A stretch of DNA of 64,000 nt. Source: Echinarachnius parma (Eukaryota; Echinodermata; Echinoidea; Clypeasteroida; Echinarachniidae). The position numbers and the translations under genes are program-made. The DNA lies in NCBI GenBank assembly GCA_037951105.1, contig JBAMJV010002915.1:118501-182500 (forward strand), read 5' to 3'. The stretch's first letter is position 1; each line of letters starts with the position of its first letter. Below, piece after piece: positions 2,760 through 64,000 of the stretch. Under the pieces are notes generated by a model. The model did not search any database and was not told the DNA's origin. It was given only the letters and a program-made list of their open reading frames with translations.

Positions 2760-3842
2760 TAGTGTTATGCAAATAGTTATTAAACGGTAAATATCGTCAT
2801 GAAAACAATGCAGAGGTGAAGATTTTAACATTATTAAGACCAGGAATAAACATAGATGTATGAACATTAATTGTGATTATTGAATAATGACATGCATCCA
2901 TGAATATAATGGTGGCATTTATATAAACCATATAATCAGCACATACAAACTGTTCAAATATTAAACTACTAGGTCAATTTGAAGAATTATATTTGTTAGC
3001 ATAGAGAACAGGGACACATGTGGTAAGACATTTAGATTTTAAGAAACATTCTTACCATATTAATGTGCGACTTTAAAGCATTCACAGTGCGCAGTAAACA
3101 GATGATGGTTGTCGTGGACGTCTCACCAACTTGTTCTTAAAGCGAGCTGCAATGATCCACTTGATTGGCCTTCCGGAGCTTCACCAAGGTTCTGGGGGCT
3201 ATTGTTTACAATTGCATTATATATATACAACGACAAATCCGGAAGTCGGTATCATTAGTAATGATACGTTTTCTTGTTTTATGTCCAGTAGGTATAATAC
3301 TGTTTTTCCCTAATGTGACCACGTGACGACGCAAACCAATGAAAAGGCGTATTTTAATAATCGATCATTATTGTACGAATTTGTCAAAATCTATAGTGTC
3401 TATGTTCGCCTTTGCTCTACATTAGTGTCTCCATTCAACCTATTAATCTATATGAACTCAGAAAGGTTCGGAATAACAACCAAATATACCCCACTGCAGT
3501 TAGTTATAATACGTACACGTGCGCTTTAACAAACGCGTCAGAACCTTATAGCACACTGTGCGGTAATGTTGGCAAAATATAACAAATTTATCTAAAATGA
3601 CAACATATGAAAATAATACATCAATATAGAGCAAGGGCCTTACATACGAATAATATCTTGGGAATAAGTCCAATATGTATCTTTCTTAGATCCTAGTACA
3701 ACATCCAAATAAAACAATTATTTCACATAATTATGTTCATTTGTTAAATTTTGAAATATATAGTTGTTATCACCGTATATGCAAGTCGAATGTAATGAGC
3801 AACGTTTGTAAATGTTTTTGATATGAAGCAATACAAACAAAA
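2760..3842. other. No gene recognised
   Basis: Unique-looking AT-rich sequence. Short open frames at 3131-3313 and 3323-3529 have no recognisable domain or splice context. No repeat family was identified. Confidence 0.4.
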
Positions 3843-3844
3843 TA

Positions 3845-4655
3845 CAGTCAAACCTGTCTATAGCGACCACTCAAGGGACCGGCGAAAAGTGGTCGCTATA
3901 GACAGGTGGTCGCATTAGACAAGTTGGCAGCCATTTTGCATTTTCTGGTCGCATATAACCATGCCTATATGCACATGTGTAGTTTATTGGCATCAGTGCA
4001 CGCACGTGTTTGTAGTTTAATTAAGTATTTATTGCATGCATAACTACAACAAAAAATTTAATTATATATGAATTGGCATCACATTTTGAATGATATTAAA
4101 TGGTTTTATTATCTTTAAACTACGTGAAATTGAAATTGCAAAATGTGTCAATGTGTCATGTATTTATTTACTCGTCAATATACTTGAGAGAACCAGCTGC
4201 ACTTTTAAATGCTCTTGTGTAGTTTTCCATATAATTCTGAAATCAAGATGCATCGTTTGGTTAACAAGAGCACGGATTATCATTGAAAAGAATTAGGAAC
4301 ACGGGGAAACATCCCGCCTCGGCTATCAAAATACTTTTTAGATGTCAAATTCGGTTGTGATGTTGAGTGAAGTGTCTTTGTTTGACGCAGTTCAGTATTA
4401 GCATCAGGTACTAAAGTGAAGGGCACAAATAATCTTTGTTTTTGAATCTGAAGCACCTGCTGTCGGTTAAGCCTTTTTAATTAATATTGTTTTATGCATT
4501 AACCTGCTCAGAACTGGAGCCTTGAGCGACTTTGTGCCTTGGTCGCTCAAGCGCTATTTTTTGGTCGCTATACACAGGTTTAAACGTGCGTCGGGACCCA
4601 AATGGGGTAGTCGCTGGTCGCGTTAGGCAGGTGGTCGCATTAGCAGGTTTGACTG
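3845..4655. mobile_element. TIR element with TA target duplication (pogo/Tc1-mariner-like, non-autonomous)
   Basis: The termini CAGTCAAACCTG (left) and CAGGTTTGACTG (right) are perfect inverted repeats flanked by TA at 3843-3844 and 4656-4657. Both ends continue with 'gcgaccac'/'ggtcgct' subterminal repeats ('tggtcgctata', 'gtggtcgcatta'). The length is 811 bp with no transposase frame. CAG-starting TIRs with a TA duplication are typical of Tc1/mariner-pogo elements; the family assignment is inference. Confidence 0.75.
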
Positions 4656-7787: not shown

Positions 7788-8125
7788 CCCAGCTAGCCAC
7801 CTGACGTTGGGCCGATGTCGGAATTTGGTTGCCGGATGTCGGCATATCGCCGTTGGCTCGAGGTTAAAATGTCCGCCAGCCCAACATCGTCACGACGTCA
7901 TTTTTGTGATATATTGGCATAAGGTCATTTTCCGACAATGGCCCAACATCATGTCATGAGATGATGTTGGGCCATTGTCGGAAAATGACGTTATGCCAAT
8001 ATATCACAAAAATGACGTCGTGACGATGTTGGGCTGGCGGACATTTTAACCTCGAGCCAACGGCGATATGCCGACATCCGGCAACCAAATTCCGACATCG
8101 GCCCAACGTCAGGTGGCTAGCTGGG
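7788..8125. repeat. Near-perfect 338-bp palindrome
   Basis: Arms 7788-7952 and 7961-8125 are reverse complements over 165 bp with only about one mismatch seen, around an 8-base loop 'gtcatgag'. The arms carry repeats of the type 'gccgatgtcgg' and 'cccaacatcgtc'. The ends are CCCAGCTAGCCAC and GTGGCTAGCTGGG. Probably a foldback or MITE-type element. Confidence 0.9.
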
Positions 8126-11410: not shown

Positions 11411-12020
11411 TAATGTATCGTTATAAATAATCATTACTAGGTGGGTGGGGTGAGTATTATGATAGTTATTGTTGATTTCATCTGTGTTATTACATTGATT
11501 TAGGGTGTATAATGTATTGTAATTTGTGTTATGCTGATTTGTATTTGATGTATTTTTCTTGCTTTATTTGTTTAACCCGTTCTCGTCGAGATTCTGACAT
11601 TCCCGTAGACTTTGTGCATAACCAACCAGGTTTCCGTATTGTCATGAACGTTTAATATGGACCCCTATGAAAAACAAAATATCATGAATAGGGTGCACCG
11701 CCCAATGTGGAAATAAATACAATGAACACAAATACTTTGTGTGTGCCCAATGTCCCACAATTCGCATTATTTTGTGGCTGATTAGTAAAAAATACGAATG
11801 AATTAGGAGACACATTATATCAATTTCTTACACAGAAGGTGGTTCGAATTCGTAAAACAGCTCCATAAGCGAGGTATACCATTTTGCGAACGCCTTGCGC
11901 AAGGTGCAAAATGCACACTGACTACGTAGTATGCAGAAACCAGCACAGTTAGAAAATGGTCAACCGATATGTATTTTTTTTTTTCGAATAGTGCCCTCTA
12001 AATCCCCACGTCTGACAATC
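11410..12020. other. No gene recognised
   Basis: AT-rich sequence without a recognised repeat family or coding frame. Confidence 0.35.
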
Positions 12021-12024
12021 TTTA

Positions 12025-12435
12025 AGGGGACCACCGGGCAAAGAACAACACTTAATTATATGCTTTGGTACCGTTTTGTGATATCAAATAGATACACAAC
12101 ATTTTGCAAAGGTTTGTGTAATGTATAAACAAAGCAATTAATTTCCACCACTTACGGAACCACTACTATTTCCTGGTTCCTGGTTTGCGAATGCGTCAAT
12201 GCTATTCACGCGTACGTTTGGAGACAATGGAACGCATCCCGGGCGAGTCGTTCGCTCTGCACAAATAGTCTCGTAGTCGTACATTCAGACCGTGCTTTAG
12301 AATGGTGATGCGTTTTCCGATTATATATTTTTTTTCTGGAAACATATTTGTGTGAACTTGTTGATGGAATGGAATTCTAAAGATGTTATCTTTCATTTAT
12401 AAGAATATTATTTTTGGGTGGTGGCACCCTTTAAA
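12025..12435. repeat. Family C dispersed repeat
   Basis: Matches 32815-33196 in order: 'gggaccacc.ggcaaag', 'ttggtaccgtt', 'acattttgcaaagg', 'ccaccacttacggaacc', 'ctattcacgcgtacgttt' and 'gtggtaccctttaa'. No coding content. The flanks suggest an old transposon copy. Confidence 0.7.
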
Positions 12436-23064: not shown

Positions 23065-24138
23065 AGGGGAAGTTTTCCCACTTTCAATTTACTTTTGATT
23101 ACCCGTAAATACCGGCGTAATCTACCGCCATCGATCTAGCTACATGCGTTATGGATGCAGTGCATGCGTGATCGCATGATAAAGATAATGTATACTACTA
23201 CATGGTTTTGGCAAAGACAGCAGAGCGCCGCGTGGTACGCGTGCTAAGGCGTCCCCCCGAGCTACGCGATTGACTCGATGTACAAACGCTTACGTACGTA
23301 AATATGTGTACATGTACTTGGGTAAGCCAGCTGCGCTGACAATCTCGTAAGTGCTGGCAATATCGTAATACATGTAGCGCTAGAGTTCTCGTTCCTATTC
23401 AGGAAAACTATATTTTTGCTCGAAACTAAGGTAATTCTGAATATTTTGTAAATATATTTTCGTAAATATTGTTAAAGAAATATATCAAGATGAGAAAAAA
23501 AAATTCCTGCTTTTTTTGTCGCCAGTTTTCCTAGCGCAATTTTCTCACACTTTTTTTTTTCAATTTCAATGCTCAAAGTCGGCATGCGGCGTTTACGCGG
23601 ATGCGGCGATTGCGCCGGTATTTACGGTATGTTATCTACACATTAAAACAACATTTTAGGCAAATTATATGTCCAAGGTTTGCCCTCTGAACAAAGAAGG
23701 GGCATCACTCAAAGTCACTCTGTGTATGGGTTAATCCTATTCATCGCTTACATCATGGAGGCTGGCATTATATTTTTGAAACCCGGATTTGGAACTGTTC
23801 GCGCTAAAATGTTACGTCAAACCCAAACAAACAAGCTCGGCCTCGTTTTATTAGCTCTCGCAGCTAGCAGGATGTGTGCACAAACAAAAGGCAAAACGTG
23901 AGCCAACAAAAATAGGTATTCGAGTTTGACGTCAAATTTCAGAGCGAACAATTCCAAATCCGAGTTTCATAAACATAAATGGCAGCCTCCATGCTCTACG
24001 CACTGAATGGGATTAGCCTGTATAGCGAGTGACTTTGAATGATGCTCCACCTTGCGCAGAGGGCCAATGTGCGACGTATTTGCATGAGATTTTGTTTTAA
24101 TGTGTAGAGAACTTAATCAAAAGTAAGAAACTTCCCCT
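23065..24138. mobile_element. TTAA-flanked element with long inverted arms
   Basis: Ends AGGGGAAGTTT and AAACTTCCCCT abut TTAA (23061-23064 and 24139-24142). 'ttacttttgatta' and 'ttaatcaaaagtaa' extend the TIR. A further inverted block pairs 23696-23825 ('catcactcaaagtcac', 'aatcctattca', 'ggaggctg') with 23925-24050. No transposase was seen. The 3.94-kb tandem duplication starts inside this element. Confidence 0.7.
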
Positions 24139-24639
24139 TTAAACGAGAATGAGCCGTTCTTCGCCATGTTTAGTCTAGTGGGTAAAAGGGGTGTTCTTGC
24201 ACCCCAATGAGAACATTTGTAACATAATTATGTCACTAAATTTAAAATGAACGTCCTCTTTAAACTGCATAGCATCGATATATACACACTGGATACAGCA
24301 CGCTGAACAATGCCGAATGAGCGACGTTGAAGCCGCCGCAAGTATCTAAAAGTCCACCTAAGTGACCAAATACAAAAGGTGCTTCTATTCATTTCCGTAA
24401 ATCGATTCACTCGAGCGAGCATGGTCTTTGTATTTGGAGTACTTTTGGAGTACTTTTTCACACTGTCGCTGGCTTAATGATGAGGGCGCTGTTGCTATAT
24501 CCAGTATTTTTATATCGATGCTGCATAGTGATTCATTCACGCTACGAATTTAGCTCGATAGATGGCGACAAACCCCAGGGTTCCTATTGACGAGAGTGAG
24601 CCGTTCTACAGTTGCAGTGTACTCTGACTAACTGCTCGT

Positions 24640-24731
24640 ATGTTAGTGTGAGTGTGAGTATGTGTATTAAAGTGTGTATTTATTAATGTATGTGTTGTAC
24701 GTGTGCGTGTGCGCTATGTGTTCATAGTGTA

Positions 24732-24762
<31 letters not shown>

Positions 24763-25312
24763 ATGCATGCGTATGTGTACGTTTATTTGTGTGAATGTAT
24801 GCGCATGTGTGTATGTCTGTGTCAGCATATGAATATGTGTGCGCGTTTATTTGTGTATGTGTGTGTGTTTTTTTTGTTCGAATGGCTGTATGTGTGTCCA
24901 TCTGCGTGTGCTTGTGTTTGTGGCTCTATGTGTGTATATATGTGTATGTGTGCGTGTATAAGAATGTATGCATGTGCGTGCGTTTGTATGTGTGTAATCG
25001 CATGGGTGTCCGTGTCTGTGCTGTATGTGTGCTAGTGTGTATGTGTGTATGCATATTTGTGTGTATATGTGCATACGTGTGTGTATGTATGTGTGAGTCT
25101 TTATATGTGTATGTGTGAGTGTGTGTATGTGTTAGTATGTATCTACTCGTGTGTGCGTTGTATGTGTGTTTGTGTGTGTTCGTGCTTGTGTATTTGTGCG
25201 TATGTTTGTTCTGTATGTATGTGTGTGTGCGGAAGTTTGTGCGTTTATTTGTGTATGTGTGTAAACGTTTGCGCGCGTGTGTGTGTGTGTGTGTGTGTGC
25301 TCTTTTCTCATT
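24640..25312 (+). repeat. Long GT-rich microsatellite (unit 1)
   Basis: About 670 bp of (TGTG/TATG/TGTGCG)n. Many overlapping frames (Cys/Val/Tyr/Met-rich on +, His/Thr-rich on -) arise from it and are not genes. Repeated at 28578-29250 in unit 2. Confidence 0.95.
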
Positions 25313-26134
25313 GTAATATTTTTTAATAAGTGACCGTCAACATTGTTACTAGATCCCTCTTATTTACAAATTCCATTTTAGTAGTGCCTGGATAATTACT
25401 AGCTTTGCTAATTGACTACAGCTGTACCTCATGTTAATGTTGGTAAAAGTACAGGAAAATACTGTTTCTGCATCGAATTATTGGACATTGCAATAATAAG
25501 CAAAGTAAAACATTATCAAATACTAACCTGTTACCATTTTCCCCTCTAAATCTTGTACCTTTCGCCAAGCTTATTGCCATTGTCCACGGCAAGTTAAGCA
25601 TTTTACTACGGAACGTGAACGCATCGATCGAATCAATATTGCCCTTGATAATACATTGACAAGCTAACTATTTTAAATTGTCACATGACTCTCAAACAAA
25701 CAAAATGCAAGAACGGTTTCCCCAGAGACAGTTCAAACTTAGTAACGGGAAGCAGTTTTGTTTGTTATTTAGTTGTTGTTACGCCCCTGGCAAGAAAAAG
25801 AAGAGAAGTACATGTACAAATAAAAACGGATGGTGACCTTATTCTAACTCTCCAGCAGTAATAGCTCCGAGAATAGCACCAACTATTCAGCTGGACATAG
25901 ATGCAGTAATAATTATGATTTCATAATTACAGAATGCACTTTCAATCAAGGTTATTTTGATTTGGAATCTTTATTCTAATATGATTTAGTTCTGTATATG
26001 TTCGCGCCCTTTCAAAGTTATTTCTCTCTATTTTGAGTCAGGTATTTTACAGTGGCATGGTCAAGAATAAATAATTGTAAACGTGGCAAAGTCGACTTTG
26101 GATTAATATATTTAAACTTGTTTTTGTATAACAA

Positions 26135-26575
26135 ATCAAGGGTTCTAGGACTACTACCCCCTGGACAACCACCCCCCGGACGATTACCCCCGGTCAACTA
26201 CCCCCCCTAGGACAATTACCCCCCGGACAACTACCACCCGGACAATTACCCCCTAGGACAATTACCCCCAAGACAATTACCCCCCCCCAAGACAACTACC
26301 CCCCAAGAAAACTACCCTCCAAGACAATTACCCCCAAGACAATTACCCCCCAAGACAATTACCCCCAAGACAACTACCCCCAAGACAACTACCCCCCGGA
26401 TAATTACCCCCCGGACAATTACCCCCCGGACAACTACCCCCCGGACAACTACCCCCCTAGGACAATTACCCCCCAAGACAACTACCCCCGGATGATTACT
26501 CCCCGGACGATTACCCCCCAAGACGATTACCCCCAAGACAATTACCCCCCACCCCGCCAAGACAAAATATGTGAC
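26135..26575 (+). repeat. GACAATTACCCCCC minisatellite (unit 1)
   Basis: About 28 units of 14-17 bp, 'gacaattacccccaa' and close variants. The Gly/Val-rich 82-codon minus-strand frame is an artefact. Repeated at 30073-30512. Confidence 0.95.
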
Positions 26576-26699
26576 CGTTCAGGCCGGTAGCCAGGATTTT
26601 TCAAGGGGGTAGGTTTGGGGTGCGTATTTGCAAAAACGGGACCAAGGCCACTGGTTGAGTCGTGTGTGTGTGTGTGTTGATTTAGTTGTGTAAGCAGGG

Positions 26700-26995
26700 A
26701 ACAAATCCAAATAGGTTTTTAAAAGGTTGTTGATGATATCTCTATTCAATCATTATTTTCACAAAACATCAAATGCACAATTTTGTATGAAAATGGCTAA
26801 AACCAATGAGTTTTTTTAGAGAGCGCCCTCTTCAGTTGTAATGGCTCTTTTTAAATGATAACAGGGGTTTTACTCAGTCGTTTGTAATTGTGTATACTTT
26901 TAGAGCATGGTGGAGTTATAACTATTAGTTTGTACCGTAATGGTGCAGGTTTTGGTTAGACCAATTCTCTACTATCCCTTCAAGTGATTTACCAC
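26700..26995 (-). repeat. Family A fragment, minus strand (unit 1)
   Basis: Contains 'aaaaggttgttgatgatatc', 'gagcgccctctt', 'gataacaggg', 'catggtggagttataacta' and 'ctactatccctt', that is one half of family A in reverse orientation. The inner half is missing. Duplicated at 30637-30932. Confidence 0.7.
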
Positions 26996-27688
26996 TTTCA
27001 GCATTCAATTGAAAAAACATGCTATTTGCATTCAATTTCACCAACGGATTTCCCGAAGGGCGGTATTACGTAATCACGAATTTACTCGCTTTAAATTGAA
27101 TGTTATGACAATTTGTTGCAGTTCAAAATCGTTTTTTAGCATTCGAATTCACATATTGATAATTCGGAAACATTTTGTTTGCATTCGATTTAAAACGTGT
27201 TTCTATTTCGTAACATTGTCATGTGAATTTTGAAAAGTCACAATTTTGCCACATATGAGCCGTTTTTTCAGTGAATGTTAATGAAAACAAACGTTATTTC
27301 GGTTAATTTAGTACTCTCATTGCCATTTTTAAATTATGTTTCCTCTGCCAATCCCTATAATCGATTCAGAAGAAGTTATACATTGCGTTTATATTAATTA
27401 GCATACATATATTTCTGGAATTATTGACGGTCATATAATTTGATCAATGATTTCATCAAGTTATAAGTGGACGGTGTAGCGTGGTCAAATTTGTTGTGTT
27501 TATTTTTATTTTTTTTTAATTTTTGTATTAAATTGTATTACTTTTTTCCCCAGGGGGTGTGAGTTGGGACTGGCATCTGGATTAATGGGGGCACACTGTG
27601 TTGATTTTGTCAGTAAGTATAGGTTTTCCATTATGTTATGTACTGTTTGTATTGAATGATTAATGTCGCCCTTCTATAAATAGGCGTG

Positions 27689-28669
27689 CATCATGGAGGC
27701 TGGCATTATATTTTTGAAACCCGGATTTGGAACTGTTCGCGCTAAAATGTTACGTCAAACCCAAACAAACAAGCTCGGCCTCGTTTTATTAGCTCTCGCA
27801 GCTAGCAGGATGTGTGCACAAACAAAAGGCAAAACGTGAGCCAACAAAAATAGGTATTCGAGTTTGACGTCAAATTTCAGAGCGAACAATTCCAAATCCG
27901 AGTTTCATAAACATAAATGGCAGCCTCCATGCTCTACGCACTGAATGGGATTAGCCTGTATAGCGAGTGACTTTGAATGATGCTCCACCTTGCGCAGAGG
28001 GCCAATGTGCGACGTATTTGCATGAGATTTTGTTTTAATGTGTAGAGAACTTAATCAAAAGTAAGAAACTTCCCCTTTAAACGAGAATGAGCCGTTCTTC
28101 GCCATGTTTAGTCTAGTGGGTAAAAGGGGTGTTCTTGCACCCCAATGAGAACATTTGTAACATAATTATGTCACTAAATTTAAAATGAACGTCCTCTTTA
28201 AACTGCATAGCATCGATATATACACACTGGATACAGCACGCTGAACAATGCCGAATGAGCGACGTTGAAGCCGCCGCAAGTATCTAAAAGTCCACCTAAG
28301 TGACCAAATACAAAAGGTGCTTCTATTCATTTCCGTAAATCGATTCACTCGAGCGAGCATGGTCTTTGTATTTGGAGTACTTTTGGAGTACTTTTTCACA
28401 CTGTCGCTGGCTTAATGATGAGGGCGCTGTTGCTATATCCAGTATTTTTATATCGATGCTGCATAGTGATTCATTCACGCTACGAATTTAGCTCGATAGA
28501 TGGCGACAAACCCCAGGGTTCCTATTGACGAGAGTGAGCCGTTCTACAGTTGCAGTGTACTCTGACTAACTGCTCGTATGTTAGTGTGAGTGTGAGTATG
28601 TGTATTAAAGTGTGTATTTATTAATGTATGTGTTGTACGTGTGCGTGTGCGCTATGTGTTCATAGTGTA

Positions 28670-28700
<31 letters not shown>

Positions 28701-31625
28701 ATGCATGCGTATGTGTACGTTTATTTGTGTGAATGTATGCGCATGTGTGTATGTCTGTGTCAGCATATGAATATGTGTGCGCGTTTATTTGTGTATGTGT
28801 GTGTGTTTTTTTTGTTCGAATGGCTGTATGTGTGTCCATCTGCGTGTGCTTGTGTTTGTGGCTCTATGTGTGTATATATGTGTATGTGTGCGTGTATAAG
28901 AATGTATGCATGTGCGTGCGTTTGTATGTGTGTAATCGCATGGGTGTCCGTGTCTGTGCTGTATGTGTGCTAGTGTGTATGTGTGTATGCATATTTGTGT
29001 GTATATGTGCATACGTGTGTGTATGTATGTGTGAGTCTTTATATGTGTATGTGTGAGTGTGTGTATGTGTTAGTATGTATCTACTCGTGTGTGCGTTGTA
29101 TGTGTGTTTGTGTGTGTTCGTGCTTGTGTATTTGTGCGTATGTTTGTTCTGTATGTATGTGTGTGTGCGGAAGTTTGTGCGTTTATTTGTGTATGTGTGT
29201 AAACGTTTGCGCGCGTGTGTGTGTGTGTGTGTGTGTGCTCTTTTCTCATTGTAATATTTTTTAATAAGTGACCGTCAACATTGTTACTAGATCCCTCTTA
29301 TTTACAAATTCCATTTTAGTAGTGCCTGGATAATTACTAGCTTTGCTAATTGACTACAGCTGTACCTCATGTTAATGTTGGTAAAAGTACAGGAAAATAC
29401 TGTTTCTGCATCGAATTATTGGACATTGCAATAATAAGCAAAGTAAAACATTATCAAATACTAACCTGTTACCATTTTCCCCTCTAAATCTTGTACCTTT
29501 CGCCAAGCTTATTGCCATTGTCCACGGCAAGTTAAGCATTTTACTACGGAACGTGAACGCATCGATCGAATCAATATTGCCCTTGATAATACATTGACAA
29601 GCTAACTATTTTAAATTGTCACATGACTCTCAAACAAACAAAATGCAAGAACGGTTTCCCCAGAGACAGTTCAAACTTAGTAACGGGAAGCAGTTTTGTT
29701 TGTTATTTAGTTGTTGTTACGCCCCTGGCAAGAAAAAGAAGAGAAGTACATGTACAAATAAAAACGGATGGTGACCTTATTCTAACTCTCCAGCAGTAAT
29801 AGCTCCGAGAATAGCACCAACTATTCAGCTGGACATAGATGCAGTAATAATTATGATTTCATAATTACAGAATGCACTTTCAATCAAGGTTATTTTGATT
29901 TGGAATCTTTATTCTAATATGATTTAGTTCTGTATATGTTCGCGCCCTTTCAAAGTTATTTCTCTCTATTTTGAGTCAGGTATTTTACAGTGGCATGGTC
30001 AAGAATAAATAATTGTAAACGTGGCAAAGTCGACTTTGGATTAATATATTTAAACTTGTTTTTGTATAACAAATCAAGGGTTCTAGGACTACTACCCCCT
30101 GGACAACCACCCCCCGGACGATTACCCCCGGTCAACTACCCCCCCTAGGACAATTACCCCCCGGACAACTACCACCCGGACAATTACCCCCTAGGACAAT
30201 TACCCCCAAGACAATTACCCCCCCCAAGACAACTACCCCCCAAGAAAACTACCCTCCAAGACAATTACCCCCAAGACAATTACCCCCCAAGACAATTACC
30301 CCCAAGACAACTACCCCCAAGACAACTACCCCCCGGATAATTACCCCCCGGACAATTACCCCCCGGACAACTACCCCCCGGACAACTACCCCCCTAGGAC
30401 AATTACCCCCCAAGACAACTACCCCCGGATGATTACTCCCCGGACGATTACCCCCCAAGACGATTACCCCCAAGACAATTACCCCCCACCCCGCCAAGAC
30501 AAAATATGTGACCGTTCAGGCCGGTAGCCAGGATTTTTCAAGGGGGTAGGTTTGGGGTGCGTATTTGCAAAAACGGGACCAAGGCCACTGGTTGAGTCGT
30601 GTGTGTGTGTGTGTTGATTTAGTTGTGTAAGCAGGGAACAAATCCAAATAGGTTTTTAAAAGGTTGTTGATGATATCTCTATTCAATCATTATTTTCACA
30701 AAACATCAAATGCACAATTTTGTATGAAAATGGCTAAAACCAATGAGTTTTTTTAGAGAGCGCCCTCTTCAGTTGTAATGGCTCTTTTTAAATGATAACA
30801 GGGGTTTTACTCAGTCGTTTGTAATTGTGTATACTTTTAGAGCATGGTGGAGTTATAACTATTAGTTTGTACCGTAATGGTGCAGGTTTTGGTTAGACCA
30901 ATTCTCTACTATCCCTTCAAGTGATTTACCACTTTCAGCATTCAATTGAAAAAACATGCTATTTGCATTCAATTTCACCAACGGATTTCCCGAAGGGCGG
31001 TATTACGTAATCACGAATTTACTCGCTTTAAATTGAATGTTATGACAATTTGTTGCAGTTCAAAATCGTTTTTTAGCATTCGAATTCACATATTGATAAT
31101 TCGGAAACATTTTGTTTGCATTCGATTTAAAACGTGTTTCTATTTCGTAACATTGTCATGTGAATTTTGAAAAGTCACAATTTTGCCACATATGAGCCGT
31201 TTTTTCAGTGAATGTTAATGAAAACAAACGTTATTTCGGTTAATTTAGTACTCTCATTGCCATTTTTAAATTATGTTTCCTCTGCCAATCCCTATAATCG
31301 ATTCAGAAGAAGTTATACATTGCGTTTATATTAATTAGCATACATATATTTCTGGAATTATTGACGGTCATATAATTTGATCAATGATTTCATCAAGTTA
31401 TAAGTGGACGGTGTAGCGTGGTCAAATTTGTTGTGTTTATTTTTATTTTTTTTTAATTTTTGTATTAAATTGTATTACTTTTTTCCCCAGGGGGTGTGAG
31501 TTGGGACTGGCATCTGGATTAATGGGGGCACACTGTGTTGATTTTGTCAGTAAGTATAGGTTTTCCATTATGTTATGTACTGTTTGTATTGAATGATTAA
31601 TGTCGCCCTTCTATAAATAGGCGTG
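27689..31625. repeat. Tandem duplication unit 2 (3,937 bp)
   Basis: Direct, head-to-tail copy of 23751-27688. After its last base the sequence continues 'gcagctattcggatacc', whereas unit 1 is followed directly by unit 2. The near-identity means either a very recent event or a false duplication in assembly. Confidence 0.95.
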
Positions 31626-48224: not shown

Positions 48225-48580
48225 CATGATGTCATAAAAACACTTTTGGGGGAATTTTCAAATTTGGACTTCATTTTCAGAAAGAGCATAACAAATAATG
48301 TCCAAATACCGAAAATCAAAGGAATAGGTTACGTATTGGCTGAGATATGCTCATCCGAATGAATTTTATTTCAACGGGCAAATATAGTGCACTGGTTCCT
48401 AAATTTAGGAACCAGTGCACTATAACACTGATTGCCTATTCGGATGGGCATATCTCAGTCAATACGTAACCTATTCCTTTGATTTTCGATATTTGGACAT
48501 TATTTGTTATGCTCTTTCTGAAAATGAAGTCCAAATTTGAAAATTCTAAAAAAATTGTTTATGACATCATTTATGACATC
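48225..48580. repeat. ~355-bp palindrome with a perfect 42-bp centre
   Basis: 48383-48424 is a perfect palindrome (ATAGTGCACTGGTTCCTAA mirrored around AAATTT). The outer arms continue as imperfect inverted repeats: 'gcatatctcagtcaatacgt', 'taacctattcctttgatttt' and 'gctctttctgaaaatgaagt' have their reverse complements on the left. The 63-codon frame is not a gene. Confidence 0.9.
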
Positions 48581-57190: not shown

Positions 57191-57738
57191 ATGAGCCTTC
57201 GGAATAACGAACCTTAGGATTAATGAAACAAAATATTCGAATAAACAAACTCCATTTCATTTTGACGTCGGATAATATCATATTTGTACCGCAGATATAC
57301 AATGAATATTTAACACATCTGGAAACCATTTGATAACTTTTTCTAAGTCCATTTTGGTGGCGCCTTATTGGTATATTCCCTGGTTTCAGATATGCTTTTC
57401 CTGATGCAAGCTTTCATTTCTGGACTGGACACTAAGAGTCATTATTCGTCACAAATCTTTACGACCTACTACAAATTAATTGTGCTACGTTTACCATTCA
57501 CATACCGTGTAATTTGAAGCCCAATTTATAGTTTAAATTACTATATAATTGCATTCTACGAAATTATATTTCCTTTTAAAGAAATCATCTCGTTGTTCAA
57601 GAGAAGTCTTGAATAATATAACATGTGCTCCATGTGACATTAATAGCGTTTTGACTATACAACTTTGTAAACTGGTCCTTAGGAGGTTCGCATTGGTTGC
57701 ATTGCGATTTTTTGAAAATACCACTCGCTCCATCCACC

Positions 57739-58875
57739 ATGTCAATACCGGAATCGAGCAATGTCTGTCCGCCAGATGTGCTGGTCTACGACTTGCGAAA
57801 CTACTCATCGGATAACCTCGAAAGCTTCTTCTACATCAGTGGCGAGAATGTCTTGATCACCGTCATCATGCCCATCATCTGGGCCATCGGGCTCCCGGCC
57901 AACGTCGCCTTCATATACATGGTCATTCGTCTTCCTCGCATGCGTACGGTGACCAACTACTACCTCCTCAACCTTGCAATCGCCGACATCATGTGCTTAT
58001 GCTTTGCAGAGGGTGACAAGATCGGTCGTTACGTAGCTTCTCCTGTCTGGAACGACCAGTTCAGTTTGAAGGTCGTTGGGTGTGTGTTGATCAACTACAT
58101 TGTCCAGCTCTCCTACTATGCGTCCATCTTCCTCGTGACGCCTGTGACGTTGGCGAAGTACTACGCCGTGTGTCGCCCGTTACTGCATCGTCTCGTCACT
58201 GGTAGAAAGCGCACCATTTCCAAGGTAACCGGGGCTTGGGTCCTGGCTGGAGTTTTTGCTGCTGCCCTGATTCCCGCCTGGGTCAGCTGGTTATCCTACT
58301 GTATCCTTTGGCCAGACAAGGCGGAGTACGCCAACGTTCCGAATCTCGTCGTATACTGTTTGCCGGTGTCACCGGTCATGCAGATTGTCGTTAATGGGCT
58401 CCAGACCATTCCATTCTTCATCGTCATGTACGCGTTCATCATACGCCAAGTAAACACGCGCTTTGCGGTGCGTAAACAGGAGCAAGGCGCCGCTGACGAA
58501 CGCAGGATTCAGATGCGCAATCAGGTTGTCCGAATGCTGATCGCCAACGGTGTCATCTTCTTCATCACACTCGCGCCATACCAGTGCGCGTCGCTCGCCA
58601 TGATGATCTCCGGTGCCATCGGGAAGTACCTTCTGGAAGATGAGCAGGTTATCAAGGTGCAGTGGGAGGGACGGATCCTGTCCTACATCAACTCCACAAT
58701 CAATCCATTCGTCTACACCATCTTTAACCAGCGTTACAGGCAGGCATTTCTTGAGGTTTTCGCCTGCTGCCCTGGTATCAGGGAAAAGCTGACAAAGAAA
58801 GCGTATCTGGATGATGGTGGACCATCGACCGGAACCAAGGAACAAGCGGGGACAAGTGCCACGTCGACCGCTTAG
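57739..58875 (+). CDS. Rhodopsin-class (class A) G protein-coupled receptor, intronless
   Basis: Seven-pass plasma-membrane receptor of 378 aa, presumed to couple a neuropeptide-like or other extracellular ligand to G proteins; the ligand is unknown. The start at 57739 is chosen over an in-frame ATG at 57697 because CATCCACCATG is a strong initiation context and the extra 14 residues look like 5' UTR. Landmarks: N-glycosylation site N21-Y-S; TM1 with N55 (GLPAN); TM2 NLAIAD with D83; C115 at the top of TM3 and C207 (or C188) in loop 2 for the disulfide; TM4 W167; TM5 P225; TM6 P280; TM7 NPFVY (322-326); helix 8 with C343-C344 for palmitoylation; Ser/Thr-rich tail. Oddities: the DRY position reads A139-K140-Y141, and CWxP reads TLAP (L278 instead of Trp). 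The single exon and GC-rich codons contrast with the AT-rich flanks. The subfamily is not recognised. Confidence 0.95.
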   Translation: MSIPESSNVCPPDVLVYDLRNYSSDNLESFFYISGENVLITVIMPIIWAIGLPANVAFIYMVIRLPRMRTVTNYYLLNLAIADIMCLCFAEGDKIGRYVASPVWNDQFSLKVVGCVLINYIVQLSYYASIFLVTPVTLAKYYAVCRPLLHRLVTGRKRTISKVTGAWVLAGVFAAALIPAWVSWLSYCILWPDKAEYANVPNLVVYCLPVSPVMQIVVNGLQTIPFFIVMYAFIIRQVNTRFAVRKQEQGAADERRIQMRNQVVRMLIANGVIFFITLAPYQCASLAMMISGAIGKYLLEDEQVIKVQWEGRILSYINSTINPFVYTIFNQRYRQAFLEVFACCPGIREKLTKKAYLDDGGPSTGTKEQAGTSATSTA

Positions 58876-61073: not shown

Positions 61074-61172
61074 GTGAGAAAATAAAAAAACACACAGTGA
61101 TTAATTTAACGTCATATACAGTCCTACAAAAAAAAACGGGGGTTAGTGAAGTCACTACTGGGCAATTCCACC

Positions 61173-64000
61173 ATAACGGAATTACATTCAGAGACGTTTT
61201 TTGCTCATTATTTCATTCCCTGCGCAATATTCTCATGACTTAAGTAAATTTTGATACTTATATAAGTTGCACGGGTAACCAGGCTACAACATGATAGGGA
61301 AATGGTTTTATATCTTCCATGTGTTGTTGCACACTAGACCAATATGCGTGACCGTAACGGCATTACCGGAGAATGGAGTTTTTTTTTTGCTACAAGTTTG
61401 CGTTGAGTTTCTCTGAAATATAAGACACTCTGAAACTGATTTTATGTATTTTTTCTATCTTGATAATGTCAACTTCATTTTGGAACAAGTACGTGCATAA
61501 ACAACACAATGATAAGTTCACAAATTCACTTTTTTGAAAAAAGACCACTGTAACGGAATTACACAAATTTGTAACGGAATTACATCTCTGAAAGTTACAA
61601 GGAAAACTCAATTATTTTGCACTCAACTTTTCTTACATGCTAATGCAAACATCAAGGCTATCTAGCACTTGAATATAAACCATAATTTGACATATCTGTA
61701 AAGCAATTTTTGAACATGTTATGTGTAAAATAAATGAAAATATGGCCAAAATACAAATAAGAGTGAAATTTGAAAAAAATATTGCTAAAATCCAGCTTTA
61801 TTTCGGTTTATTTTCAGCTTCATATTAGTAGGCAAGAAATTAAAAAGGATTGCATCAATTTAATGAAAGAAAAATCCTAGGAACTATGTCCACTAATGTG
61901 TGTAACGGAATTACACAACTTAAGCAGTGAAATCAATTTTTCCACAAATCGGTACATGAACAACAAAGAATTCACATTTTAGCTTCAATACTTTTCAAAA
62001 GTCAATAATTTGACAATAATAACCATATTTGAAGAGAAAAAAGGCAACATTTTAGAATTTTTCCTTTACTTCAAGAAAAATGGTTAAATTGTGGGACAAA
62101 AAATACTACATTATGTGACATGCTAAATAACTGCACATAATCAATATCAAGCAACATTTAAACAATTACAAATCACAAACGGGTCAAATCATTCAACTTT
62201 CAATGCTATAAAGCCTCGTAAACTTCCTGAATATTGGAAATCTGTGTGAATGGAAATGCATTGTGAATGGGTAATTCCACTGTTACAGAATGACAAATAA
62301 GTGATTTTTGGCTCTGTTTTCTTAATCATATTTAAAATTCCTTTCACTTTCACAGTTTTTAAAACTTAAATAACTGGCAGGGGTACTAGAGGTACAACAG
62401 AACCCAAGATTGTTACAAATCTATAACACTATAGCGTCCAGAGACCAAAATACAATCATAACGGAAAGGGGTCTTTCATTCAACACAAACTATGTAATGA
62501 TTTTCTGCAAAAGCTACCACAAAAAATTCTTCATTGGTAATAAATCATTTAAGTTACAAACTTGAATTTGGTACATCTTTTTTTCCAGAAATGATCTATT
62601 TTAACCTCTGAAATTACCTTAAGACAAACGAATGTCACTGTAACGGAATTACGCCTGTGAAATCCACCCATGAAAATGCAATTTCTTGGTTACATTTTTC
62701 TGCTTTTCTGCTTATAGTCATTAGTAAAGAATGTATATAAGCATTGTTCATCACAAGCTCTTACATAAGGACCAGAACAAATCCTGAAGTTATGTGTGTG
62801 CATAACAGAATTACAAGAAAATCAAGATTTTTTATATAAACTCTTATATTCTAAAATTATTCTTTACAAAATTCATCCTAAATTGATCTTAATTTACTCT
62901 CAAATCAATTTGGAATGCGTTTTCATCCATTCCATGAAATACGTGTATAGATGTATATCGGATATAAACGTGTATGATCCTCAAACAAAAAGTTGGCATA
63001 TAAAATATAAATATGGAATTGCCAAAAATGAAAGACACCTTTAGGAATTCCCATTTGAAAATGCAAATACTTTGTACATCATTCTTCTTTGATCTGCATA
63101 CAGAAGCACACTGAACACTCAATGTATTCTGACTTTATGATAATGAATAAAACATGTGTATCTTAGCCTGTATTATGTTTAGTTTTGAATATCTTGAAGC
63201 CTATTCTGTATTTATGTTTAATTTTATATGCTTCAGTTTAATACAAATTTACATAATTAATGATGAGTTATGAGCCTTTAACTGATCAATGATATTCAAA
63301 TCTACATACAATTACAAAATTATTAATATTAAATCTCCTTGAAAGTTGAAGGTATGATTTATATCTTAAAATACATGAATGTAAATTAATGTGAGAAAAT
63401 AAATGTAGCACCAGTGTCATACTAATCACTGGATATTTTTTTAAAAATTGTATTGTTTTTGTTTTTCCCTTTCTAAAGTACAAACATGAATCTGCTGCAT
63501 CTTCATAATTTCAGTCAAGTGGTTCTTGCTGGAAACTAATTTAATGATAGAACATTATCATCTCTATTATGTTCATGGAGAGATTAGAGAAATTATCTAT
63601 CGTGTATCAATTTAGTCAAATCACCATTGATGCAATATGAAGCATGTGGGTACAATGAGTCACATAAAGTAACATTGTACAGTACTTGTATAATGACGTA
63701 TCGTCTACATGGCTACAGTTCATGCTATTTAAAGGGTATTTCTACATTGAGAACAAGAAAAAAGAAAAAAATTTCAGCAATATCATTCAATACCTTACAA
63801 ACCGTGTGCGTGTAATTCCGTTACGTAACGGAATTACTAATACCGTTACGCCAATTTTGGAAAAAGTAGTGACATTATTTCAGAAAATTATGTTGGAAGT
63901 TCTTAGGACTGTGGTGAAGGAAGAGAATTCACAATGACATGACTAAAGAACAAGTAATAAGATATTGAGAAAAACTTATTACGTTTTATCGTAACGGAAT
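61173..64000. repeat. Dispersed GTAACGGAATTAC motif cluster
   Basis: Exact 13-mers at 61550, 61571, 61902, 62640 and 63825, the reverse complement at 63812, and a truncated copy at 63991 cut by the window end. Near copies are at 61173, 61354 and 62802. The pair at 63812-63837 makes a perfect 26-bp palindrome. Spacing is irregular and the DNA between is not repetitive by eye. No gene is recognised in this stretch. Confidence 0.85.

What the first reader, a model, noticed from the sequence alone, without database searches (positions are those of the whole stretch)
61173..64000. Irregularly spaced cluster of the 13-mer GTAACGGAATTAC
At least six exact copies (one inverted, forming a 26-bp palindrome with its neighbour), three near copies and one cut by the window edge lie in 2.8 kb. 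Chance would give essentially none. Spacings (21, 331, 738, about 1,185 bp) rule out a simple tandem array, and the DNA between copies is not obviously repeated. Seen directly: motif and positions. Inference: a binding-site cluster for a sequence-specific protein, or iterated subterminal repeats of an unrecognised transposon whose other end is outside the window.
Basis: partly seen in the sequence, partly recalled or inferred. Interest (0 to 1): 0.7.

Follow-up and report, generated by a model that had tools for sequence, protein, structure and literature searches.

The report
Jumping DNA with family-specific site arrays
The 13-letter word marks one copy of a common jumping DNA element whose binding-site-like words stay at fixed distances from its ends while the word itself changes from family to family.

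Summary
In detail: six exact copies of GTAACGGAATTAC, four near copies and one cut copy lie at 61173-64000. They mark a roughly 3.2-kb non-autonomous DNA transposon that starts at 61160 and runs off the window. Its genome (1.2 Gb, unnamed) has 6,800 exact copies of the 13-mer against 19 for the reversed word. Elements read with both ends have the terminus GGGCAATTCC and an exact 4-bp target-site duplication in 17 of 17. Four families share this terminus and, with a few exceptions, the places of the motif: about 14, 193 and 391 bases from one end, 371 from the other. Yet the motif differs: GTAACGGAATTAC (A, B), GTAACGGAAGGAC (C), GTAACGCCGTGAC (D), and spacers of distant families are mostly no more alike than shuffled ones. 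Best reading: family-specific sites of a transposase or helper protein that pairs the ends. No autonomous element or transposase was found, so the superfamily is open; TSD and short TIR fit Sola2.

The parts
61156..61159 (.). TACT, presumed left copy of the 4-bp target-site duplication of this insertion
   Evidence: Bases just outside the terminus; the right copy lies beyond the window, where 5 kb read N (L009), so it was not checked here. 17 of 17 elements read with both ends elsewhere have an exact 4-bp TSD
61160..64000 (+). Left 2,841 bases of a family-A non-autonomous DNA transposon (typical full length about 3.2 kb), cut by the window edge
   Evidence: Aligns in one to four pieces to copies in L010-L015, L020, L022 and L024, pieces 89-100% identical; mismatch distance to six copies 2.1-5.9%
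61160..61169 (+). Terminal inverted repeat GGGCAATTCC (motif-bearing L end)
61173..61185 (+). Site L14 (ATAACGGAATTAC, one mismatch)
61354..61366 (+). Site L195 (one mismatch)
61550..61562 (+). Site L391 (exact)
61571..61583 (+). Site L412 (exact), partner of L391
61902..61914 (+). Site L743 (exact)
62269..62295 (+). Internal degenerate second L end: GGGTAATTCC plus a decayed motif (three mismatches). The ten-base terminus GGGCAATTCC is intact inside L011, L015, L022 and L024
   Evidence: that these are a second L end is inference from sequence and order
62640..62652 (+). Internal site (exact)
62802..62814 (+). Internal site (two mismatches)
63812..63849 (.).
63991..64000 (+). Site R371, cut by the window edge
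   Evidence: by alignment it is the site at 371-372 from the R end in other copies

Best explanation
The cluster is the set of transposase-side binding sites of a high-copy non-autonomous cut-and-paste DNA transposon. Shown: discrete elements with a short TIR, 4-bp TSDs, asymmetric ends, and motif copies at fixed distances from each end. Shown: four families share terminus and layout but carry three versions of the motif (constant GTAACG and AC around a variable core). Inferred: a transposase, or a helper protein of an autonomous relative, binds the sites of its own family cooperatively and pairs the L and R ends; the catalytic domain then cuts at GGGCAATTCC and inserts with a 4-base stagger. 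Inferred: because the terminus is shared, the motif array is what tells each family's protein which elements are its own.
For: Genome counts, pattern against reversed pattern: 13-mer 6,800 against 19; L end with motif 2,168 against 0; A/B R end 838 against 0; C R end 777 against 0; L end with another core 594 against 0. Exact 4-bp TSD in 17 of 17 elements read with both ends (16 of 16, D). Sites from the L end: A 14/195/391/412, B 14/192/392/412 in 3 of 5, C 14/193/390/404, D 14/194/391/405. From the R end a site at 371-372 in 16 of 17 elements, and a second + site at 535-538 in 6 of 9 A, 2 of 2 C and the one D. C and D were met as insertions nested in A copies, not through their motif. Random placement of sites reached the A-C agreement (4 of 7 A sites) in 0 of 200,000 trials, D-A and D-C in 0 of 200,000.
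Against: No autonomous copy, transposase or binding protein was found. Of the elements paired from end lists (A 32 of 35, B 10 of 11, C 35 of 54 L ends) most are known by length alone; Pfam was run on only nine open frames from the copies read. The within-family test of motif conservation is weak (A: 2 of 65 motif columns variable against 107 of 899, p=0.025; B: 1 of 65 against 62 of 906, p=0.12) and biased, since A and B were found by the exact motif. A-B spacers, and C-D spacers in two of three segments, keep similarity above shuffles, and A-C (R side) and A-D (one L segment) are borderline, so part of the shared layout may be plain descent. The layout has exceptions: B copies L017 and L019 have the third and fourth sites shifted by 10 and 20 bases, A copy L014 lacks L391/L412, L022 has lost the R-side sites. 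The layout trials assume uniform placement and were set up after seeing the data. D rests on one copy read in full.
Confidence: 0.85

Rival explanations
1. The motif is a binding site of a host protein (a transcription factor or a silencing factor) that the element carries, not a site of its own transposase.
For: TAACGG resembles a Myb-type core (recalled), and mobile elements often carry host regulatory sites (recalled).
Against: Sites lie at fixed distances from both ends, one directly beside the TIR, and the core differs between families of one genome while positions stay; a single host protein would not readily explain different cores.
Confidence: 0.08
2. The elements are transposons, but the shared layout is only inheritance from a common ancestor, with no selection on sites or spacing (this overlaps with the best explanation and is not exclusive of it).
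For: A-B spacers and two of three C-D spacer segments are more alike than shuffles; A-C on the R side and A-D in one L segment are borderline. The families share the terminus.
Against: The other A-C, A-D, B-C and B-D comparisons are within the range of shuffled sequence, yet the sites stay within 1-3 bases over about 370-390 bases; and nearly all sites of a family show that family's core.
Confidence: 0.12
3. A host regulatory cluster or an array specific to this place.
For: Irregular spacing within the window.
Against: 6,800 genome copies, dispersed with recurring spacings among the first 100 places listed; discrete ends and TSDs.
Confidence: 0.02
4. A decayed satellite or tandem repeat.
For: C has a tandem copy of its L-end layout (615/794/992 repeat 14/193/390 at about +601), and A has an internal degenerate L end.
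Against: In 61160-64000 the tandem-repeat scan lists only one short row, 62235-62270, 2.2 copies of 17 bases; the ends and TSDs are those of a transposon.
Confidence: 0.01

Closest known systems
Sola2 DNA transposons
   Same: Sola2-type elements are reported with 12-13 bp TIRs and AT-rich 4-bp TSDs, AWWT (PMC3627910, passages seen). Here: 4-bp TSDs, AT-rich, and TIRs of 10 (A), 11 (B), 13 (C) and 18 bp (D) by the ends.
   Different: Only 6 of 17 TSDs fit AWWT. No transposase was found, and the TIR was not compared with known Sola2 elements.
Maize Ac/Ds (hAT)
   Same: Short TIRs plus multiple copies of a short motif (AAACGG) in the ends, bound cooperatively by the transposase; heterogeneous non-autonomous classes that share little else (PMC3260210, passages seen).
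   Different: 8-bp TSD there, 4-bp here. The Ac motifs lie within the terminal 200 bp; here they lie at fixed places out to 371-560 bases and beyond.
Galileo (P superfamily)
   Same: Several binding sites of the transposase's THAP domain within the ends, proposed to give binding specificity (PMC3688188, abstract seen).
   Different: Long TIRs with tandem repeats there; short TIRs here.
CACTA (En/Spm)
   Same: Iterated subterminal motifs (recalled; only listings seen).
   Different: Terminus is GGGCA, not CACTA; TSD 4 bp (CACTA's 3 bp is recalled). My early CACTA guess came from flanking bases at 61153 and was wrong.
PIF/Harbinger
   Same: A Myb-like helper protein that binds subterminal repeats (recalled).
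   Different: 3-bp TSD in Harbinger (abstract line in the listing, PMC2213677); 4 bp in 17 of 17 here.

Membership tests
TIR (cut-and-paste) DNA transposon | Discrete ends with terminal inverted repeats | tested here: met
   GGGCAATTCC...GGAATTGCCC (one base changed at L019's L end) in the 17 elements read with both ends
TIR (cut-and-paste) DNA transposon | Target-site duplication of fixed length | tested here: met
   Exact 4-bp TSD, 16 of 16 plus D. The script took a right end with matching TSD where several were possible; this mattered at L010, which holds a nested element. Copies without both ends in the fetched stretch, the window's own among them, were left out
TIR (cut-and-paste) DNA transposon | Own or related transposase | tested here: inconclusive
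   No autonomous copy found; the open fragment in B has no Pfam match above the curated cut-off
Sola2 | AT-rich 4-bp TSD | tested here: met
   Length and AT-richness met; the AWWT form given in PMC3627910 fits 6 of 17
Sola2 | Sola2-type transposase | not tested
   No reference sequence at hand and no autonomous copy found
CACTA (En/Spm, Chapaev) | Terminus begins with CAC (recalled) | tested here: not met
   Terminus begins GGGCAATTCC
hAT (Ac/Ds) | 8-bp TSD (PMC3260210) | tested here: not met
   4-bp TSD
PIF/Harbinger | 3-bp TSD (listing) | tested here: not met
   4-bp TSD of varying sequence
piggyBac / Kolobok / Sola3 | TTAA target (recalled) | tested here: not met
   TSDs include TAGT, ATAT, AGCA, TGGT, ATGT and TACA; none is TTAA

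The most novel reading that the evidence does not exclude
The elements form a re-addressable transposon system: one conserved end scaffold (terminus plus site positions) in which the sites of a family are switched together to a new core sequence, so that families in one genome are mobilised separately by proteins of different specificity. The fixed L spacings of about 180 and 200 bases might even reflect nucleosome-scale packing of the paired ends.
Probability: 0.3. Interest if true: 0.75.

Novelty: new variant of a known kind. Interest (0 to 1): 0.5.

Why it matters
How a transposase tells its own elements from relatives, and how many sites in one element can change together, is hard to study because motif and layout usually diverge together. 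Here several families in one genome share terminus and site positions while the motif core differs. That is a ready set of natural variants for testing site recognition, spacing and cross-mobilisation. It also explains a striking repeated word as part of a mobile element.

Tried and rejected
CACTA element starting at 61153: rejected, most copies align only from about 61159-61160. Coding capacity of the window copy: frames of at most 91 aa between stops lie inside it. Transposase by the B remnant: 151 matches with 150 of 407 candidates scored, and 150 matches with 150 of 1,076 scored, so these are capped lists. Of the 30 loci brought in, all 30 carry the 13-mer (up to one mismatch) and 29 the exact terminus; L055, L069 and L071 were looked at separately and are B-type copies. 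A search with the B R-end listed 40 places of 218 candidates; the one without a remnant in the list (C588) proved an ordinary B copy with a broken frame. The longest A copy not yet read (C266) held nested family D instead of a transposase. Rfam: no match at gathering scores. Viral contigs: 0 exact matches to the palindrome and to an L-end pattern. Prokaryote genome contigs: 13 matches to a pattern with 18 fixed bases, judged chance because none of the 13 carries a motif cluster. Literature: no paper in the held library prints the 13-mer or its complement; one sheep paper holds a 12-letter part (listing). Four 10-base words from the terminus or motif occur in 167 papers, of which 40 were listed and none has a transposon title; the other 127 were not seen. 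Searches were seen as listings only. Bao et al. 2009 on Sola is not held. The pattern had a wrong gap length and is not used. An earlier count said 24 of 32 A lengths lie in 3150-3268; the recount gives 23.

Full report
The observation. The window holds six exact copies of GTAACGGAATTAC, four near copies and one cut copy, all between 61173 and the window edge. With up to two mismatches there are ten matches; 0 of 100 shuffles reached ten.

What it is. There the 13-mer occurs 3,403 + 3,397 times, against 9 + 10 for the reversed word, and the places listed fall in clusters with recurring spacings. I fetched 14 stretches, one of them the window's own. Copies like the window's (family A) align from about window position 61160 and end together about 3.2 kb later. 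Their ends are GGGCAATTCC and GGAATTGCCC, flanked by 4-bp duplications of varying sequence. A second set (family B, about 3.9 kb) has the same ends. The window copy's right end should fall about 362 bases beyond the edge, by alignment to L013; the 5 kb there read N.

Further families. One A copy (L010) contains a nested element of 2,493 bases with the same terminus and TSD TAAA; its repeated word is GTAACGGAAGGAC, nine copies. This is family C; a second copy is in L023. Another A copy (C266, 5,229 bases) contains a nested element of 2,013 bases with TSD TACA; its repeated word is GTAACGCCGTGAC. This is family D; one copy was read in full. In all, 17 elements were read with both ends (9 A, 5 B, 2 C, 1 D), and 17 of 17 have an exact 4-bp TSD (16, D). 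Where several right ends were possible the script preferred one with a matching TSD; this mattered at L010. Copies lacking one end in the fetched stretch, such as the window's own and L069, are not in the count.

The layout. From the L end, sites start at 14, 195, 391 and 412 in A (L014 lacks the last two by deletion; L010 has them displaced by an insertion); at 14, 192, 392 and 412 in three of five B copies (in L017 and L019 the third and fourth lie 10 and 20 bases nearer the L end); at 14, 193, 390 and 404 in both C copies; at 14, 194, 391 and 405 in D. The first A site has one mismatch, the first D site two. From the R end a site lies at 371 or 372 in 16 of 17 elements (A copy L022 has lost it). 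A second + site lies at 535-538 in six of nine A copies, both C copies and D; in L010 and L012 it is displaced by inserted sequence. B has three inverted sites at 526-560. Random placement gave as many agreements between A and C (4 of A's 7 listed sites) in 0 of 200,000 trials, and between D and A or C in 0 of 200,000; these trials assume uniform placement and were set up after seeing the data. The C block of sites recurs about 601 bases further in, and A has an internal degenerate L end, at 62269 in the window.

Motif and spacers. The three words share GTAACG at the start and AC at the end; the positions between vary. Spacers of A and B are more alike than shuffles in all three segments tested, C and D in two of three. 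Of the other comparisons, A-C on the R side (0 of 100 shuffles as good) and A-D in one L segment (2 of 100) are borderline; the rest lie within the range of shuffles. C and D thus share some spacer descent but differ in motif core. C and D were met as insertions, not through their motifs, so their layout is free of the search bias that affects A and B. The within-family comparison is biased and weak and is not used as support.

Numbers and age. L ends of A, B and C with an intact first site: 2,168 against 0 for the reversed pattern; the 100 listed end in TTAC or GGAC. R ends: 838 for A/B, 777 for C. L ends with another core: 594 against 0; letters were shown for 25 places, of which 24 are D-type and one (C55) reads CAAACGTGTACAC at position 14. 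Lengths by pairing the listed ends: A 32 of 35 paired, 23 of them 3,150-3,268 bases; B 10 of 11, 3,829-4,561; C 35 of 54, 21 of them 2,478-2,502, with shorter classes near 2,150 and 780. These use exact patterns and capped lists. Mean mismatch between copies is 4.1% in A (7 copies, the window's included), 3.3% in B (5) and 1.6% in C (2), so the copies look fairly recent.

Coding capacity. In the copies whose frames I listed, A has none above 115 aa between stops, without a Pfam match. B carries a 129-aa open fragment read from R to L (L018:5498-5887), 180 aa in L055, with no Pfam match above the cut-off. Related fragments lie at 151 and 150 places in two capped searches; those looked at belong to B-type copies. 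It may be the tail of a lost transposase; that is inference. No autonomous copy was found.

How it most likely works. A protein of an autonomous relative binds the family's own sites at both ends, brings the ends together, and the transposase cuts at the shared terminus and inserts with a 4-base stagger. Shown: ends, TSDs, site layout, family-specific cores. Inferred: the binding protein, cooperation between sites, and the use of the core as an address.

Comparison. Multi-site ends are known from Ac/Ds, where the transposase binds repeated AAACGG (PMC3260210, passages), and from Galileo, whose THAP domain binds several sites in the ends (PMC3688188, abstract). The AT-rich 4-bp TSD and short TIR fit Sola2 as described in PMC3627910 (passages), though only 6 of 17 TSDs have the AWWT form given there, and no transposase was tested. 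CACTA, hAT, Harbinger and TTAA-type superfamilies fail on terminus or TSD. What is unusual is a site layout that outlasts most spacer similarity and carries different cores in different families.

Verdict. It is a new variant of a known kind, of moderate interest now, and of higher interest if the addressing model is shown.

Noticed in passing
window 23751-31625: Two head-to-tail copies of a 3,938-base segment, 99.98% identical: a very recent tandem duplication or an assembly artefact.
   Followed up: no
window 57655-58875: A 406-aa stop-to-stop frame that looks by eye like a seven-helix membrane receptor; no family search was run.
   Followed up: no
L070 1161-1600 (inside family D): Four copies of AGGTCAAAGGTCA (two overlapping), which looks like a nuclear-receptor DR1 site (recalled), in the middle of the D element.
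   Followed up: no
   Followed up: partly
L018 5498-5887 and L055 2443-2985: Open fragment ending in a stretch that recalls a small Tudor-like domain (impression from recall); no Pfam match above the cut-off.
   Followed up: partly
window 12018-12435: About 79-83% similar to the middle of B elements and to a stretch in L015: probably another dispersed repeat nested in B.
   Followed up: no
window 7788-8125 and 48226-48570: Palindromes of 338 bases (98.8% self-complementary) and about 345 bases (86%), probably hairpin-type mobile elements.
   Followed up: no
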